64,000 bases of DNA, from assembly GCF_010682065.1 (NCBI RefSeq), contig NZ_JAAGWG010000001.1:62001-126000 (forward strand), in the 5' to 3' direction. The translations under genes were made by a program, and so were the position numbers. Of the stretch, positions 27,388-40,732 are shown one piece after another. The DNA comes from Blastococcus saxobsidens (GTDB taxonomy: Bacteria; Actinomycetota; Actinomycetes; Mycobacteriales; Geodermatophilaceae). The notes below the pieces were generated by a model, which saw only the letters and a program-made list of their open reading frames with translations, was not told the DNA's origin and searched no databases. The first letter of the stretch is position 1; each line of letters begins with the position of its first letter.

Positions 27388-30300
27388 GTGCCAGGAGTGA
27401 AGACCTGGCTCGAGAGCTGGCCGGTGTACCGGCAGCTGACCGGCTCGGACCCGTTGGGGCGCGGCAAGGCCGCCCGCAGCAAGGCGACCGAGGCGACGGT
27501 GTCGCGTACCGCGACGGCTGACCGCGTGGTGAAGAGCGTCTGCCCGTACTGCGCCGTGGGCTGCGCGCAGAACGTGTACGTGAAGGACGAGAAGATCGTC
27601 CAGATCGAGGGCGACCCGAACTCCCCGATCAACCGCGGTCGGCTGTGCCCGAAGGGCAGTGCCAGCAAGCAGCTGGTCACCAGCCCGTCGCGCGTCACGA
27701 CGGTCAAGTACCGCCGTCCCCACGGGACGGAGTGGGAGGACCTCGAGCTGGACACGGCGATGGAGATGATCGCCGACCGCGTCCTGGACGCCCGCCGCAA
27801 GGGCTGGCAGGACACCGACGACGCGGGCCGGACGCTGCGCCGGACCATGGGGCTGGCGAGCCTCGGAGGGGCCACCCTCGACAACGAGGAGAACTACCTC
27901 ATGAAGAAGCTGTACAGCGCCCTGGGCGCTGTGCAGATCGAGAACCAAGCACGCATATAGCACTCTGCGACGGTGCCCGGTCTGGGTGCCTCGTTCGGTC
28001 GTGGCGGTGCCACGAACTTCCTGGAAGACCTCGCGAACTCCGACTGCATCGTCATCGAGGGTTCGAACATGGCCGAGTGCCACCCGGTGGGCTTCCAGTG
28101 GGTCGGTGAGGCCAAGGCGCGCGGCGCGAAGATCATCCACATCGATCCTCGCTTCACGCGGACCAGCGCGATCGCCGATCTGCACGTCCCGCTGCGCATC
28201 GGCACCGACATCGCGTTCCTCGGCGGCCTGATCAACTACGTGCTGAGCAACGAGCTGTACTTCAAGGACTACGTCGTCGCCTACACGAACGCCGCGGCGC
28301 TGGTCGGCGAGGAGTTCGTCGACTCCGAGGACCTCGACGGCCTGTTCTCCGGCTACGACGCCGAGAACCGGCAGTACGACCAGGACACCTGGAAGTACGA
28401 GCCGGAGGAGAGCGAGCACTCCGGCTCGGACAACCCGGCCGAGGCGGCCGAGCAGGACCGCACGGAGAACGACCCGGCGGTGCAGGGCTCCGACCGCGCG
28501 CAGGCCGCCGGCAGCGGCGGTCCGCCGATCGCCAGCAAGCCCAAGCGCGACGAGTCGCTGCAGCACCCGCGCTCGGTGTTCCAGATCCTCAAGCGGCACT
28601 TCGCCCGCTACACCCCGGAGATGGTGTCCGAGGCCTGCGGCATCGAGCCGGAGGTGTTCGAGCAGGTCGCCAGGTGGGTGACCGAGAACAGCAACCGCGA
28701 CCGGACGACGGCGTGGGTGTACTCGGTGGGCTGGACGCAGCACAGCGTCGGCGCGCAGTACATCCGCACCTGCTCGATCCTGCAGACGCTGCTGGGCAAC
28801 ATCGGCCGTCCGGGCGGCGGGATCATGGCGCTGCGCGGGCACGCGAGCATCCAGGGCTCGACGGACGTGCCCACGCTGTTCAACCTGCTGCCCGGCTACC
28901 TGCCGATGCCGCACGCCCACCAGCACTCCTCGCTGGAGGAGTTCGTGGCCGACGCCGCCGGCAAGGCGGGGTTCTGGGGCAACAAGCGCGACTACATGAC
29001 CAGCCTGCTCAAGGCCTGGTGGGGCGAGCACGCTCGGGAAGAGAACGACTTCGCCTTCGACTACCTGCCGCGCATCGACGGCGACCACAGCTCCTACCGG
29101 ACGATCGCCGACATGATCTCCGGCAAGGTCAGCGGCTACTTCCTGGTCGGTGAGAACCCCGGTGTCGGCCACCCGAACAGCCGGATGAACCGGTTCGGCC
29201 TGGCCAACCTGGACTGGCTCGTCGTCCGCGACCTGCAGATGATCGAGTCGGCGACCTTCTGGAAGGAAGGCCCGGAGCACGAGACCGGCGAGCTGAAGCC
29301 GGAGACGATCGCCACCGAGGTCTTCTTCATGCCTGCGGCCACGCACGTGGAGAAGGAAGGCACCTTCACCCAGACCCAGCGGGTGCTGCAGTGGCGGCAC
29401 AAGGCGGTCGAGCCGCCGAACGACGCCCGCAGCGACCTGTGGTTCTACTTCCACCTCGGCCGCATCCTGCGCGAGCGGCTGAAGGACTCCACCGACCCGC
29501 GGGACCGCCCGCTGCTCGACCTCACCTGGGACTACCCGACCGAGGGCGAGACGGCCGACCCGAGCGCAGCCGCCGTGCTGCGCGAGATCAACGGCTACGG
29601 CCCCCACGGTGAGCTGCTGAACTCCTACATGCAGATGAAGTCCGACGGCTCGACCAGCGGCGGCTGCTGGATCTACACCGGCGTCTACGCCGACGGGGTC
29701 AACCAGGCCGCTCGCCGCAAGCCGGCCAAGGAGCAGGGCCCGGTCGCCTCGGAGTGGGGCTGGGCGTGGCCCCTGAACCGGCGGATGCTCTACAACCGCG
29801 CCTCGGCCGACCCGGACGGCAAGCCGTGGAGCGAGCGCAAGAAGTACGTGTGGTGGGACGAAGACGCCGGCGAGTGGACCGGCCTGGACGTGCCCGACTT
29901 CGAGAAGAAGAAGCGGCCGGACTACGTGCCACCGGACGGCGCCAAGGCGCAGGACGCGCTGGCCGGAAACGACCCGTTCGTCATGCAGGGCGACGGCAAG
30001 GCGTGGCTGTACGCGCCTGCCGGGCTGGTCGACGGCCCGCTGCCGACGCACTACGAGCCGGCCGAGTCGGTCGTGGAGAACCCGCTGTACAAGCAGCAGG
30101 CCAACCCGACGCTGGAGCAGTTCGACGGGCCGTGGAACCGGGCCAACCCCGCGCGCAGCGAGGTCTTCCCGTTCCAGGTGACCACCTACCGGCTCACCGA
30201 GCACCACACCGCCGGTGGCATGAGCCGCACGCTGCCCTACCTCGCCGAGCTCCAGCCGGAGTTCTTCGTGGAGATCAGCCCGGAGCTGGCTCGCCTGCGT

Positions 30301-30690
30301 GGGCTCTCCAACGGCGAGTTCGCCACGCTGGTCAGCGCGCGCACGGCCATCGAGGCGAAGGTGCTGGTCACCGAGCGGATGCGGCCGATCAAGCTGCGCG
30401 ACGGCACCGTCGTCCACCAGATCGGCATGCCGTACCACTGGTCCTACGCGGGCATCTCCACCGGTGACGCCGCCAACGACCTGCTGGGCATCGTGATGGA
30501 CGCCAACACCCACATCCAGGAGTCGAAGGTCAGCAGCTGCGACATCGTGGCCGGGCGCCGTCCGCGGGGTCCGGAGCTGCTGGAGTTCGTCGAGGCCTAC
30601 CGGAAGCGGGCCGGCGTGCAGTCGGGCCGGGTGGGCGTGAACGGCCGCGAGCCCGTGGACGCCGACGCCGGTCAGGGATCGAAGCTGTGA
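27388..30690 (+). CDS. fdhA: Formate dehydrogenase catalytic subunit, selenoprotein with UAG-encoded selenocysteine
   Basis: Read through the in-frame UAG at 27958-27960 the gene encodes 1100 residues, a normal length for a molybdo/tungsto-bis-MGD formate dehydrogenase oxidising formate to CO2. The N-terminal [4Fe-4S] motif is CPYCAVGC...RLCPKG. UAG falls at residue 191 in NQARI-[UAG]-HSATVPGLG, exactly where E. coli FdnG has selenocysteine followed by the catalytic His, and a SECIS hairpin follows. The frame is identical on both sides. GTG 27388 has GAGG seven bases upstream; GTG 27397 is the alternative. There is no Tat signal, so it is cytoplasmic. An acidic insert of about 60 residues follows near residue 335. 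Standard annotation would split it into two genes. Confidence 0.95.
27958..27990 (+). promoter_or_regulatory. UAG selenocysteine codon with bacterial SECIS element
   Basis: UAG (27958-27960) is followed after 11 bases by a stem GGTGCCC (27972-27978) / GGGTGCC (27984-27990), seven pairs including two wobbles, closing the pentaloop GGTCT (27979-27983). E. coli fdnG/fdhF SECIS apical loops carry the same GGUCU bound by SelB, and the 18-base distance from stop codon to loop equals that in fdhF as I recall it. The whole element lies inside the coding sequence. Confidence 0.93.
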
Positions 30691-30718
30691 CGATTCAGCA
30701 CGACGAGAGGAGGCCGGC

Positions 30719-31786
30719 ATGACCTCCATCAGCTCGGCGAGCCCGGGTCTGGCGATGCCGGACCCGAAGAACCGGCTGTTCGGGCCGCTGCCCGACGTGT
30801 CGGCGGAGGCCGGTTACGAGGAGGACCACCCCAAGCGGGTCGGCTTCTTCACCGACACCTCGGTCTGCATCGGCTGCAAGGCCTGCGAGGTGGCCTGCAA
30901 GGAGTGGAACACGCTCCCGATGGACGACTCGCACGGCGAGCGGGACGCCCTCGGCCTGTCGGGGATGTCCTACGACAACACCGGCATGCTGGGCGCCAAC
31001 TCGTGGCGGCACGTGGCGTTCATCGAGCAGTCACGCGCGGTCGACCTGCCGATGCCGACTCATCGCCGCCCCGGCGACGACCGGAGTGCCGGGGGAGACC
31101 TGCCGGCGCCGGACAGCGGTGACCTGGACTCCACCGCCAAGGCGCAGGCCAGCGTGCTCAACGCCGAGGCGCTCTCGGAGTTCGACCCGCAGACCGGGCA
31201 GACCGGCGCGGACAAGCAGATCCGCTGGCTGATGAGCTCCGACGTCTGCAAGCACTGCACGCACGCGGGTTGCCTCGACGTCTGCCCGACCGGTGCACTG
31301 TTCCGCACCGAGTTCGGCACCGTCGTCGTGCAGGGCGACATCTGCAACGGCTGCGGCTACTGCGTGGCGGCCTGCCCCTACGGCGTGATCGACCAGCGCA
31401 AGGACGACGGCCGGGTCTTCAAGTGCACGATGTGCTACGACCGGCTGACCGACGGGCTGCAGCCGGCGTGCGCCACCGCGTGCCCGACGCAGTCCATCCA
31501 GTTCGGTGACCTCGACGAGCTGCAGGAGCGCGCCGACGCACGGCTGGCGACGCTCAAGGCGCAGGGCGTGGAGACCGCGCGGCTGTACGGCCGGGACGAG
31601 AACGACGGCGTAGGCGGGGACGGGGCGTTCTTCCTGCTCCTCGACGAGCCGGAGGTCTACGGACTGCCGCCGGACCCGATCGTCACGACCCGGGACCTGC
31701 CGGCGATGTGGAAGGCGGCCGGCAAGGCCGCGGCGATGATGGTCGGGGTCGCCGTGACGGCGATCCTCGGCTCGCGGAGGCGCTGA
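30719..31786 (+). CDS. fdhB: Formate dehydrogenase iron-sulfur subunit
   Basis: 355 residues. Four [4Fe-4S] clusters can be traced: CIGCKACEVACKEWN, CKHCTHAGCLDVCPTGAL, CNGCGYCVAACPYGV and CTMCYDRLTDGLQPACATACP. A C-terminal hydrophobic segment (AAAMMVGVAVTAILGS) may anchor the subunit to the membrane. It relays electrons from the catalytic subunit to the NrfD-type membrane partner. It lies 28 bases after fdhA, with GAGAGGAGG just upstream, and one base before the next gene. Confidence 0.94.
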   Translation: MTSISSASPGLAMPDPKNRLFGPLPDVSAEAGYEEDHPKRVGFFTDTSVCIGCKACEVACKEWNTLPMDDSHGERDALGLSGMSYDNTGMLGANSWRHVAFIEQSRAVDLPMPTHRRPGDDRSAGGDLPAPDSGDLDSTAKAQASVLNAEALSEFDPQTGQTGADKQIRWLMSSDVCKHCTHAGCLDVCPTGALFRTEFGTVVVQGDICNGCGYCVAACPYGVIDQRKDDGRVFKCTMCYDRLTDGLQPACATACPTQSIQFGDLDELQERADARLATLKAQGVETARLYGRDENDGVGGDGAFFLLLDEPEVYGLPPDPIVTTRDLPAMWKAAGKAAAMMVGVAVTAILGSRRR

Positions 31787-31787
31787 C

Positions 31788-32834
31788 ATGACCGGCGGGA
31801 TCACCAGCCCGGACGCTGGGTGGCGGCAGGCCGATCGCGGCCCGGCGACCCAGCAGAAGACGGGCAAGAAGCGCCGCAAGCGTGGCGGAGGCCGGGGTCG
31901 CGGCGAGGTCGCGATGGTCGACGACGTCGAGTTCACCTCGTACTACGGCCGGCAGATCGTCAAGACGCCGGTGTGGAAGTCGCCCGACGTGCCGCTGTAC
32001 CTGTTCCTCGGTGGGGCGGCCGGCTCCTCGGCGATCCTCGGTGCGCTCGCGGACTTCACCGACCGGCCGACGCTGACGAAGGTGTCCCGGCTGACCGCCG
32101 GTGGTGGCTCGATCCTGTCCGTGGTCTTCCTGATCCACGACCTGGGCCGGCCGTCGCGGTTCCTGCACATGCTGCGGGTGTTCAAGCTGACCTCGCCGCT
32201 GTCGGTGGGCACCTACATCCTGGCGCCGTTCAGCGCGGCGGCCGGGGCGACGGCGGCGGTGGAGCTGCTGGGCTGGTTCCCGCGGCTCAAGCGCTTCGGG
32301 GGTGCGGTGGCGGCGCTGTTCGGTGGGCCGCTGGCCACCTACACGGGCGTGCTGCTGGCCAACACCGCGGTGCCGTCGTGGCATGCGGCGCACACCCAGC
32401 TGCCGTTCGTGTTCGGTGGCTCGGCGATGGCCGCCGGCGGTGGCATCACGATGATGTTCACGCCGGTGGACGAGGCCGGGCCGTCGCGCAAGATGGCGGT
32501 GGCCGGGGCCGCGATCGAGCTGGCCGCGATGCACAAGGTGGAGAACGACCACGGCATCGAGAGCGAGCCGTACCACGAGGGGCGCCCGGGCAAGTTCATG
32601 CAGGCGGCCAAGGCGTGCACTGCGGTGGGCGCCGGGCTGACCGTGGTCGCCGGACGCACCCGCGCCGGGGCGATCGCCTCCGGAACGCTGCTGGCCGCCG
32701 GGTCGCTGCTCACCCGCTTCGGCGTCTTCGAGGCCGGCATCGCCAGCACCAAGGACCCGAAGTACGTCGTCATCCCGCAGCGCGAGCGGCTGGCCGCCCA
32801 GCAGAACGAGCACTCCTCGACGATCACCCGCTGA
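31788..32834 (+). CDS. NrfD/PsrC-type membrane subunit of formate dehydrogenase
   Basis: 348 residues. A basic, Lys/Arg/Gly-rich N-terminus of ~45 residues precedes TSYYGRQIVKTPVWKSPDVPLYLFLGGAAGSSAILGALAD, a good NrfD start. About eight hydrophobic helices follow. FLIHDLGRPSRFLHMLRVFKLTSPLSVGTY is the family's quinone-site region. It would pass electrons from the Fe-S subunit to menaquinone in place of the cytochrome b FdhC/FdnI. It starts one base after fdhB and ends the operon at a hairpin. Confidence 0.9.
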   Translation: MTGGITSPDAGWRQADRGPATQQKTGKKRRKRGGGRGRGEVAMVDDVEFTSYYGRQIVKTPVWKSPDVPLYLFLGGAAGSSAILGALADFTDRPTLTKVSRLTAGGGSILSVVFLIHDLGRPSRFLHMLRVFKLTSPLSVGTYILAPFSAAAGATAAVELLGWFPRLKRFGGAVAALFGGPLATYTGVLLANTAVPSWHAAHTQLPFVFGGSAMAAGGGITMMFTPVDEAGPSRKMAVAGAAIELAAMHKVENDHGIESEPYHEGRPGKFMQAAKACTAVGAGLTVVAGRTRAGAIASGTLLAAGSLLTRFGVFEAGIASTKDPKYVVIPQRERLAAQQNEHSSTITR

Positions 32835-32865: not shown

Positions 32866-33663
32866 TCAGATGAGGCCGCTGTCGAGGGACTGCTGCCAGG
32901 ACATCTCGTCGATCACGGCGCGCTTCTCGACGTCGTCGAAGCGCACCTTCTTCCAGGTGTGCCCCTGCTCGGTGCCGGCCGTGGCGCTGCGGTGCCACTC
33001 GCCCTTGCGGGTCAGGAACCAGGAGCGGCCGTGGTAGCCGGAGCCGGTGAACAGCCAGCCGGAGAGGCTGGTGAGCCCGTTGCGCTGCTTCTGGAGCTCG
33101 CGGGCGTAGGGGAGGAGGTACAGGCAGACGTCGGTGAAGTCGGTGGCGCGCAGGCCGCGGAGCACGTGGACGGCGGAGCGGATCTCCTGCTGGGTGCGCT
33201 TGGCGTCGCGGGTGTAGAGGATCCAGACGGCGTCCTCGTCGGCGAGCTCGAGCAGGGTGGTGCGCTGCCGGAGGCGCTCGGCCTCGGCGGCGGCTGCTTC
33301 TTCCTCGCGGCGGCGCTCCTCGGCGGCCGCGGCCGAGCGTGCGCGCACGCGGGCGAGGGCGAGGTCACGGTCGCAGACCCGCCAGCCCTGCCAGAGGTCG
33401 GAGTGGTCGGCGCAGACCATGCGGGAGCACTCGGTGCACTCGCCGACGGCGGGGTCGCCGCAGCGGCATCGTGCCGAGCCGATCCTGTCGTCGCTGGATT
33501 GGACGTAGACCTTGCCGCACCGGCGTTCCGTCACGGTGGCAATGGGCGACGGAGCGACGCCGACGGCGACGGGCTGGCCGGCCGGGACGAGGGCGTCGCA
33601 GCGCCAGTACCCGGGCAGGATCTGCGTGCGTGCGTCCGTCGCCCCACAGGAGGGGCATGGCAT
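32866..33663 (-). CDS. Zinc-ribbon/coiled-coil protein, paralogue 1
   Basis: 265 residues. N-terminal Cys pairs (CPSCGATD, WRCDAL, RRCGKVY, CRCGDPAVGECTECSRMVCADH) suggest one or two zinc ribbons and a B-box-like site. An Ala/Glu/Arg coiled coil follows (residues ~108-140), then an unassigned C-terminal domain with SWFLTRKGEWHRS and a final acidic tail. The function is unknown. A second copy at 39935-40732 differs at about 19 of 265 positions by eye. It converges on the formate dehydrogenase operon. Confidence 0.8.
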   Translation of the reverse strand: MPCPSCGATDARTQILPGYWRCDALVPAGQPVAVGVAPSPIATVTERRCGKVYVQSSDDRIGSARCRCGDPAVGECTECSRMVCADHSDLWQGWRVCDRDLALARVRARSAAAAEERRREEEAAAAEAERLRQRTTLLELADEDAVWILYTRDAKRTQQEIRSAVHVLRGLRATDFTDVCLYLLPYARELQKQRNGLTSLSGWLFTGSGYHGRSWFLTRKGEWHRSATAGTEQGHTWKKVRFDDVEKRAVIDEMSWQQSLDSGLI

Positions 33664-39934: not shown

Positions 39935-40732
39935 TCAGACGATGCCGCTGTCGATCGACTGCTGCCAGGACATCTCGTCGATGACCGCGCGCTTCTCGAC
40001 GTCGTCGAAGCGCACCTTCTTCCAGGTGTGCCCCTGCTCGGTGCCGGCCGTGGCGCTGCGGTGCCACTCGCCCTTGCGGGTCAGGAACCAGGAGCGGCCG
40101 TGGTAGCCGGAGCCGGTCAACAGCCAGCCGGAGAGGCTGGTGATCCCGGTCCGCTGCTTCTGCGGGTCGCGGGCGTAGGGGAGGAGGTAGAGGCAGACGT
40201 CGGTGAACTCGGCGGCGGTCAGGCCGCGGAGCACGTGGACGGCGGAGCGGATCTCCTGCTGGGTGCGCTTCTGGTCGCGGGCGTAGAGGATCCAGACGGC
40301 GTCCTCGTCGGCGAGCTCGAGCAGGGTGGTGCGCTGCCGGAGGCGCTCGGCCTCGGCGGCGGCGGCCTCCTCCTCGCGGCGGCGCTCCTCGGCGGCGGCG
40401 GCCGAGCGTGCGCGCACCCGGGCGATGGCGAGGTCGCGGTCGCAGACCCGCCAGCCCTGCCAGAGGTCGGAGTGGTCGGCGCACACCATGCGGGAGCACT
40501 CGGTGCACTCGCCGACGGCGGGGTCACCGCAGCGGCATCGTGCCGAGCCGACCCTGTCGTCGTCGCTCTGGACGTAGACCTTGCCGCAGCGACGTTCCGT
40601 CACGGTGGCAATGGACGACGGAGCGACGCCGGCGGCGACAGGCTGGCCGGTTGGGACTAGGGCGTCGCAGCGCCAGTACCCGGGAAGGATCTGCGTGCGT
40701 GCGTCAGTCGCCCCACAAGAGGGACATGGCAT
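39935..40732 (-). CDS. Zinc-ribbon/coiled-coil protein, paralogue 2
   Basis: 265 residues, the near-identical twin of the protein at 32866-33663: the same zinc-ribbon Cys pattern, coiled coil and C-terminal domain, with substitutions mostly conservative and concentrated in the linker and in the ARDPQKQRTGITS region. DNA identity also extends some 25 bases upstream of the start (GGCATGCGCGAAGCCTAG). Both copies have the same orientation and are 7,069 bases apart. The function is unknown. Confidence 0.8.
   Translation of the reverse strand: MPCPSCGATDARTQILPGYWRCDALVPTGQPVAAGVAPSSIATVTERRCGKVYVQSDDDRVGSARCRCGDPAVGECTECSRMVCADHSDLWQGWRVCDRDLAIARVRARSAAAAEERRREEEAAAAEAERLRQRTTLLELADEDAVWILYARDQKRTQQEIRSAVHVLRGLTAAEFTDVCLYLLPYARDPQKQRTGITSLSGWLLTGSGYHGRSWFLTRKGEWHRSATAGTEQGHTWKKVRFDDVEKRAVIDEMSWQQSIDSGIV

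What the first reader, a model, noticed from the sequence alone, without database searches (positions are those of the whole stretch)
27388..30690. Formate dehydrogenase whose selenocysteine is encoded by UAG, not UGA
The catalytic subunit is one continuous frame apart from a single in-frame TAG at 27958-27960. TAG stands exactly at the Sec/Cys active-site position, between NQARI and the catalytic His of HSATVPGLG. A random nonsense mutation hitting that one codon, with all 909 downstream codons intact and the fdhB and nrfD genes intact, is very unlikely. UAG-directed Sec insertion has been reported in Geodermatophilus and Blastococcus (established); assigning this window to that group is inference. 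Automatic annotation would call this two fragments or a pseudogene.
Basis: partly seen in the sequence, partly recalled or inferred. Interest (0 to 1): 0.97.

Follow-up and report, generated by a model that had tools for sequence, protein, structure and literature searches.

The report
UAG-coded selenocysteine in formate dehydrogenase
A bacterium of the Blastococcus group appears to use the stop signal UAG, instead of the usual UGA, to insert the rare amino acid selenocysteine into its formate dehydrogenase; this code change was already published for its family, and here it is found in most of the family's genomes examined.

Summary
The FDH alpha frame 27388-30690 is open except for TAG at 27958-27960, which aligns with the catalytic Sec of solved FDHs. 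The same genome (91% complete) has a Sec cluster on another contig: selD, a tRNA-Sec with anticodon CUA (ARAGORN calls it tRNA-Pyl), selA and selB; no tRNA-Sec(UCA) was found. A SECIS hairpin follows the codon; its stem covaries and its loop is invariant in 81 sequences. Of the 80 best named FDH relatives 69 have TAG (67 titled as Geodermatophilaceae) and 11, from other actinobacterial genera, TGA. In the family, 101 genomes have tRNA-Sec(CUA) and 7, of three genera, only UCA; one of these genera has TGA in FDH. UAG-Sec in Geodermatophilaceae is in print (PMC5330540, citing Mukai 2016), so this is a new member of a known kind. Not seen in the paper listings I got: a relative, Geodermatophilus sp. 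LHW52908, also has a tRNA-Sec(UCA) beside a UGA-interrupted AhpD-like gene in a low-GC stretch, with one selA and one selB, so it may read both codons as Sec.

The parts
   Evidence: NCBIfam NF041513 formate_DH_Act 1922.5 bits (cut-off 1400), TIGR01553 953.3 bits (cut-off 814.2); PDB 1h0h_A E 1.9e-212
27958..27960 (+). UAG codon for selenocysteine
   Evidence: aligned with the Sec position of solved FDHs; TAG in 69 of the 80 best named loci
27972..27990 (+). bacterial SECIS-type hairpin: 7-bp stem, 5-nt loop GGUCU, after an 11-nt spacer
   Evidence: fold, z -1.68 and -1.62; 99.1% of cells paired, 3 of 7 pairs with changes on both sides, 0 of 500 shuffles as high; 25 of the 27 double-change cells are at one pair
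27979..27983 (+). apical loop GGUCU, invariant in 81 of 81 sequences
   Evidence: its Gly codon is GGT in 81 of 81, although GGT is 513 of 5527 Gly codons in the scanned downstream part of the 80 relative genes
30719..31786 (+). formate dehydrogenase beta (4Fe-4S) subunit
   Evidence: TIGR01582 180.7 bits, under its cut-off of 334.7; Fer4 domains over cut-off
31788..32834 (+). NrfD-type membrane anchor subunit
   Evidence: PF14589 and PF03916 over cut-off; no NCBIfam match

Best explanation
The gene encodes an actinobacterial Sec-containing formate dehydrogenase in which this UAG is recoded, not globally reassigned, to selenocysteine. SerRS charges tRNA-Sec(CUA) with Ser, SelA converts it to Sec with selenophosphate from SelD, and SelB brings it to the ribosome where the SECIS hairpin, 11 nt after the codon, marks this UAG as Sec; other UAGs remain stops. 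Shown: codon, hairpin with covariation, tRNA anticodon, selA/B/D genes. Inferred from the known bacterial Sec pathway: the enzyme steps. Not measured: Sec in the protein. The anticodon probably changed once inside the family, after the split from three genera that keep UCA.
For: Frame and position. Own-genome machinery with CUA anticodon; of 8 tRNA matches 2 are over the cut-off, the other being the window's tRNA-Ser(TGA). Named relatives: 69 loci TAG (67 with Geodermatophilaceae titles, one titled 'Bacillus', one 'Frankiales'), 11 loci of other actinobacterial genera TGA, of the best 80 of 548. Family-wide: 101 genomes with CUA, 7 with only UCA, among 108 of 112 in which a tRNA-Sec was found; FDH with one TAG in 98 of 112 genomes, 96 of them with a CUA tRNA; TGA at the Sec position in 4 of 4 genomes of genus g7, 3 of which have a tRNA-Sec found, all UCA. 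Second selenoprotein family: UGSC, 95 matches in 54 of 112 genomes, 72 with one TAG, 23 without a stop, none with TGA. SECIS covariation. SelA tree: 21 CUA rows on one side of a branch, support 100/99. UAG still a stop: the own selB ends in TAG, and so do 4 of 38 roughly picked window ORFs.
Against: No protein data. Folding energy of the SECIS alone is only mildly low (z -1.68 and -1.62), and nearly all its double changes are at one pair. Five CUA genomes (G033, G034, G079, G094, G096) show no TAG-bearing FDH match: G079 has two FDH copies broken over the Sec region, the others only partial or weak matches that I did not inspect. The three UGSC matches in UCA genomes (G066 twice, G072) have no stop, so UGSC does not test the UGA side. 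In the own genome no UGSC or AhpD-CFYU gene was found and AhpC was not searched, so FDH is the only UAG-Sec gene seen there.
Confidence: 0.96

Rival explanations
1. Pseudogene: a nonsense mutation or sequencing error turned Cys or Sec(UGA) into TAG.
For: An in-frame stop is present; a standard ORF list splits the gene in two.
Against: The same TAG in 69 of the 80 best named loci and in 98 of 112 family genomes, with the downstream frame kept; matching tRNA anticodon and sel genes; SECIS constraint.
Confidence: 0.01
2. UAG is read as pyrrolysine: ARAGORN labels the CUA tRNA as tRNA-Pyl.
For: ARAGORN output 'tRNA-Pyl'.
Against: The 92-nt tRNA matches RF01852 tRNA-Sec over its cut-off, sits between selD and selA, and in its anticodon arm differs from the UCA tRNA-Sec of sister genera only by the anticodon and one stem pair. 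The residue aligns with Sec of FDH. pyl genes were not searched for.
Confidence: 0.01
3. The Sec machinery acts at this UAG but often inserts another residue, or mostly terminates, the full-length protein being a minor, selenium-regulated product.
For: UAG competes with release factor 1; in E. coli a UAG/CUA pair gave full-length Sec enzyme plus truncated enzyme (PMC3834832, passages read).
Against: Same passages: with overexpressed sel genes the activity yield with UAG/CUA was about that of UGA/UCA. Conservation over the family implies a useful product.
Confidence: 0.05
4. Two separate proteins are made (termination at UAG and re-initiation downstream), without read-through.
For: GTG at 27973 could start a 905-aa ORF.
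Against: It would split the enzyme at the catalytic residue; UGA stands at the same place in 11 other actinobacterial loci, and in solved homologues the residue is inside one chain.
Confidence: 0.01

Closest known systems
UAG-directed selenocysteine in Geodermatophilaceae (Mukai et al. 2016, cited as ref. 56 in PMC5330540; Santesmasses et al. 2017 = PMC5330540, author name recalled)
   Same: Family, anticodon CUA on tRNA-Sec, FDH and UGSC as UAG selenoproteins, as stated in the passage of PMC5330540 that I saw.
   Different: PMC5330540 found three such genomes. Here CUA is read in 101 genomes of 9 genera, with 7 genomes of three genera of the family on UCA, and codon and SECIS data are tied to it. 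Mukai 2016 itself is not held; I know it only by recall and through citations.
Canonical bacterial Sec decoding by UGA (actinobacterial fdh-selD-tRNASec-selA-selB modules)
   Same: selA, selB, selD, FDH type; SECIS loop GGUCU also in the 11 TGA loci. Plasmid pYA7-1a of Arthrobacter sp. YA7-1 has fdhA(TGA)-Fe-S-nrfD-selD-tRNA-Sec(UCA)-selA-selB in a row.
   Different: Codon UAG and anticodon CUA; FDH operon and sel cluster are on different contigs here (C14 and C7).
Engineered UAG-Sec in E. coli (PMC3834832, passages read)
   Same: UAG plus tRNA-Sec(CUA) plus SECIS and SelB gives Sec enzyme.
   Different: Laboratory construct; here natural and widespread in a lineage.
Pyrrolysine decoding of UAG
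   Same: CUA anticodon.
   Different: tRNA-Sec family match and neighbours, SECIS hairpin at the site, UAG still used as a stop.

Membership tests
UAG-directed selenocysteine (Mukai 2016 type) | in-frame UAG at the Sec position of a known selenoprotein | tested here: met
UAG-directed selenocysteine (Mukai 2016 type) | tRNA-Sec with anticodon CUA in the same genome | tested here: met
UAG-directed selenocysteine (Mukai 2016 type) | no tRNA-Sec(UCA) in the same genome | tested here: met
   8 matches, 2 over cut-off, the second being the window tRNA-Ser(TGA); the genome is 91% complete, so a missed gene is possible
UAG-directed selenocysteine (Mukai 2016 type) | selA, selB, selD present | tested here: met
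   each with one match over the curated cut-off
UAG-directed selenocysteine (Mukai 2016 type) | SECIS element just after the codon | tested here: met
   energy alone weak
UAG-directed selenocysteine (Mukai 2016 type) | Sec found in the protein | not testable with these tools
   needs 75Se or mass spectrometry
Sec-containing formate dehydrogenase alpha (FDH-N/actinobacterial FDH) | family profile over curated cut-off, with Fe4S4, molybdopterin and dinucleotide-binding domains | tested here: met
Pyrrolysine system | pylS and pylBCD genes | not tested
   no search was made; the tRNA scores as tRNA-Sec
Global UAG reassignment | UAG not used as stop | tested here: not met
   selB ends in TAG; 4 of 38 roughly picked window ORFs end in TAG, 33 in TGA, 1 in TAA

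The most novel reading that the evidence does not exclude
A UAG-Sec code fixed in most of the family makes foreign UGA-selenoprotein genes unreadable unless they bring their own tRNA, and such a portable module exists: Geodermatophilus sp. LHW52908 (G058) has its native tRNA-Sec(CUA) with TAG in FDH and UGSC, plus, in a low-GC stretch beside transposase genes, a tRNA-Sec(UCA) and, about 315 bp away, an AhpD-like gene with TGA at the CFYU site. With one selA and one selB in the genome, one Sec machinery would serve two Sec codons, the codon acting as an address for each gene set.
Probability: 0.45. Interest if true: 0.75.

Novelty: new member of a known kind. Interest (0 to 1): 0.42.

Why it matters
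It shows that which stop codon means selenocysteine can be a lineage property that changes with the tRNA anticodon while SelA, SelB and the SECIS type stay, and that the changed state can persist across most of a bacterial family. Practically, annotation that knows only UGA-Sec would split these FDH, UGSC and AhpD-like genes, and a common tRNA finder names the tRNA as tRNA-Pyl. The family, with its UCA genera and one apparent two-tRNA genome, makes the evolution of stop-codon recoding testable.

Tried and rejected
Pseudogene, sequencing error, pyrrolysine and split-protein readings were weighed and set aside (see rivals). Rfam at gathering thresholds listed only a tRNA in the window, so the SECIS rests on my own alignment. 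UGSC and AhpD-CFYU were sought in the own genome and not found. The TAA-bearing AhpD-like match in G027 (L303) and the TGA-bearing one in G060 (L307) have Cys at the CxxC site; a further weak match with TAG (G093) was not inspected. G079 has two FDH copies with frame-breaking gaps over the Sec/SECIS region and the same right border; I treat it as uninformative. For the AhpD-like protein P0002: 170 of 394 genomes of the class have a match; in the capped list one row (G328) has a TGA that I did not inspect and the others none; 327 plasmid records match, all under 60% identity; no viral contig encodes a relative. The island tRNA matches 5 plasmid records. In some searches my SelA query was out of frame, so those SelA results are void; the single selA in G058 rests, and the SelA tree on the corrected query. 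The tree used 26 of 34 loci: 7 had no selA in the stretch held and 1 was too short. The position match of the loop with E. coli fdhF is recalled, from no call; the labels G23 and U17 do not occur in PMC3834832. Literature searches: (listings); passages seen in PMC5330540, PMC13188914, PMC10778597, PMC3834832, PMC7609411; no paper was read whole.

Full report
WHAT IS THERE. The window holds an FDH operon on the + strand: alpha 27388-30690, beta 30719-31786, NrfD 31788-32834. The alpha frame has one internal stop, TAG at 27958-27960, residue 191 of 1100. In the alignment to solved FDH alpha chains this residue falls on the X of 1h0h_A (recalled to be Sec) and on the C of 9qm0_A, whose molecule name says 'selenocysteine-containing'. 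The read-through protein scores 1922.5 bits against NCBIfam NF041513 (cut-off 1400).

THE MACHINERY IN THE SAME GENOME. The genome (G000, 4.09 Mb, 77 contigs, 91% complete) has one tRNA-Sec, C7:29997-30088 (65.8 bits to RF01852). Its anticodon is CTA; ARAGORN names it tRNA-Pyl. Its neighbours are selD (C7:28383-29291, minus), selA (30142-31410, plus) and selB (match from 31437, plus; ORF of 581 aa ending in TAG). The only other tRNA match over the cut-off is the tRNA-Ser(TGA) inside the window.

SECIS. After 11 nucleotides begins a 7-bp hairpin with loop GGUCU (27972-27990). In an alignment of the window and 80 relatives (50 distinct rows) 99.1% of cells are paired, three of seven pairs change on both sides, and no shuffle of 500 reaches the observed values; slid controls reach 61.4% paired at most. 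The signal is mostly one pair: 25 of 27 double-change cells are at 18-30, which is GU, CG, GC, UA or UG and never unpaired; three pairs never vary, and three cells are unpaired (two at 15-33, one at 17-31). The loop Gly codon is GGT in 81 of 81 sequences, whereas GGT is 513 of 5527 Gly codons in the scanned downstream parts of the 80 relative genes. The folding energy alone is not remarkable (z -1.68, -1.62).

RELATIVES. A scan of genome contigs gave 548 relatives of which the best 80 were kept. At the Sec position 69 have TAG and 11 TGA, no other codon. The 69 (67 assemblies) are L024 to L092: by title Blastococcus, Geodermatophilus, Modestobacter, Klenkia, Goekera, Trujillonella and unnamed Geodermatophilaceae (that these genera belong to the family is recalled), with one record titled 'UNVERIFIED_ORG: Bacillus sp. 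AZ43' and one 'Frankiales bacterium' MAG. The 11 are Amycolatopsis (5), Kibdelosporangium (2), Gandjariella, Actinosynnema, Rhodococcus and Actinopolymorpha. The window's genus is Blastococcus by contig-length identity of a same-genus handle with a named record.

FAMILY SURVEY. tRNA-Sec was found in 108 of 112 genomes of the family, 110 genes; I read the anticodon of all 110: 102 CTA genes in 101 genomes of 9 genera, 7 TCA genes in seven genomes of genera g5, g6, g7, and one extra TCA gene in G058, which also has CTA. The anticodon arm differs between the groups: GGCCT-CTA-AAGCC in 102, GGTCT-TCA-AAACC in 7, that is the anticodon plus one stem pair. FDH matches with exactly one TAG are present in 98 of 112 genomes (recounted); 96 of these have a CUA tRNA and two (G097, G098, incomplete) have none found. 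The other 14 are five CUA genomes (G033, G034, G079, G094, G096), and the nine genomes of g5-g7. In g7, 4 of 4 FDHs, of a more distant type, have TGA at the aligned position; in g5 no FDH match was found, and the weak match in G070 (g6) was not inspected. So in FDH I saw no genome with a CUA-only tRNA and a TGA at the Sec site, or the reverse. UGSC: 95 matches, 72 with one TAG, 23 without a stop, 0 with TGA (in L317 the TAG is the U of UGSC; the others were not inspected; the three matches in UCA genomes have no stop). AhpD-CFYU: six matches over the cut-off, all with TAG at the CFYU site. A SelA tree of 26 rows puts the 21 CUA rows on one side of a branch (100/99), with the three UCA rows of the same family next to them and two plasmid rows outside (midpoint root, one gene, many inner forks weakly supported).

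MECHANISM. The known bacterial Sec pathway explains this with one change, the anticodon. That a SelA/tRNA-Sec structure shows no contact with the anticodon, and that UAG/CUA works about as well as UGA/UCA in E. coli, is stated in passages of PMC3834832. In the window UGA is the main stop (33 of 38 roughly picked ORFs; 4 TAG, 1 TAA), so a move to UAG would shift competition from RF2 to RF1; an advantage from this is inference.

WHAT IS KNOWN. PMC5330540 (passages seen) states that three Geodermatophilaceae genomes had tRNA-Sec(CUA), as reported in its ref. 56 (Mukai 2016), with FDH and UGSC, and adds AhpC. PMC10778597 (passages) says that UAG, UAA and sense codons can mean Sec in some species. 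A 2026 review of the prokaryotic selenoproteome (PMC13188914, passages) has no occurrence of Geodermatophil- or Blastococcus in its main text. So the finding is a new member of a known kind.

THE SIDE FINDING. G058 is Geodermatophilus sp. LHW52908 (4 kb identical to L069, NZ_QVQH01000008.1). It has tRNA-Sec(CUA) on C11 beside its only selA match and its only selB match over cut-off, TAG in FDH (C70) and one TAG in a UGSC match (C67). Near the left end of C17, at 1-6 kb, GC is 59-65% against 77-82% around the C11 cluster. There lie a tRNA-Sec(UCA) of 81.8 bits and, divergently, an AhpD-like ORF with TGA at the CFYU site where six relatives have TAG. To its right are transposase ORFs (IS110 type and others); the ORF at the left contig end looks like a transposase by eye but was not tested (one search failed). 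A 7-bp hairpin follows the TGA, but its energy is no better than shuffles (z 0.22). From about 15 kb on, C17 has 70-79% GC, which speaks for integration in the host chromosome; but the tRNA lies about 1.2 kb from the contig end, so misassembly or contamination is not excluded. LHW52908 occurs in two papers that I saw as a listing only. In the listings I saw no title or abstract on two Sec codons in one bacterium; their full texts were not read.

Noticed in passing
L134:1173-1263 (minus) and L134:1579-2157 (plus), G058:C17: A second tRNA-Sec, with anticodon UCA, next to an AhpD-like gene with in-frame UGA at CFYU, in a low-GC stretch with transposase genes to its right, in a genome whose FDH uses UAG for Sec; one selA and one selB over cut-off in the genome.
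   Followed up: partly
L253, L254 (G079:C12, G079:C4): Both FDH copies of this CUA genome lack the Sec/SECIS region, with frame-breaking gaps of different left but equal right border; real loss or assembly artefact.
   Followed up: partly
L297-L302: AhpD-related CFYU genes with TAG at the Sec site in six genomes of the family, a further apparent UAG-selenoprotein family.
   Followed up: partly
L295 (NZ_CP110115.1, Arthrobacter plasmid pYA7-1a) and L296 (Tsukamurella plasmid): FDH-alpha, Fe-S, nrfD, selD, tRNA-Sec(UCA), selA, selB in a row on plasmids; the first is typed conjugative, has a Tn3 transposase beside it and TGA in fdhA.
   Followed up: partly
window 32866-33663 (-) and 39935-40732 (-): Two similar 265-aa ORFs (MPCPSCGATDARTQ...), 94% identical over 300 nt, 7069 bases apart.
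   Followed up: no
G036:C25:205-296 and G036:C168:20822-20913: Two different tRNA-Sec(CUA) genes in one incomplete genome; strain mixture or duplication.
   Followed up: no
L009:11175-11177: selB, which would carry out UAG recoding, itself ends in TAG.
   Followed up: no
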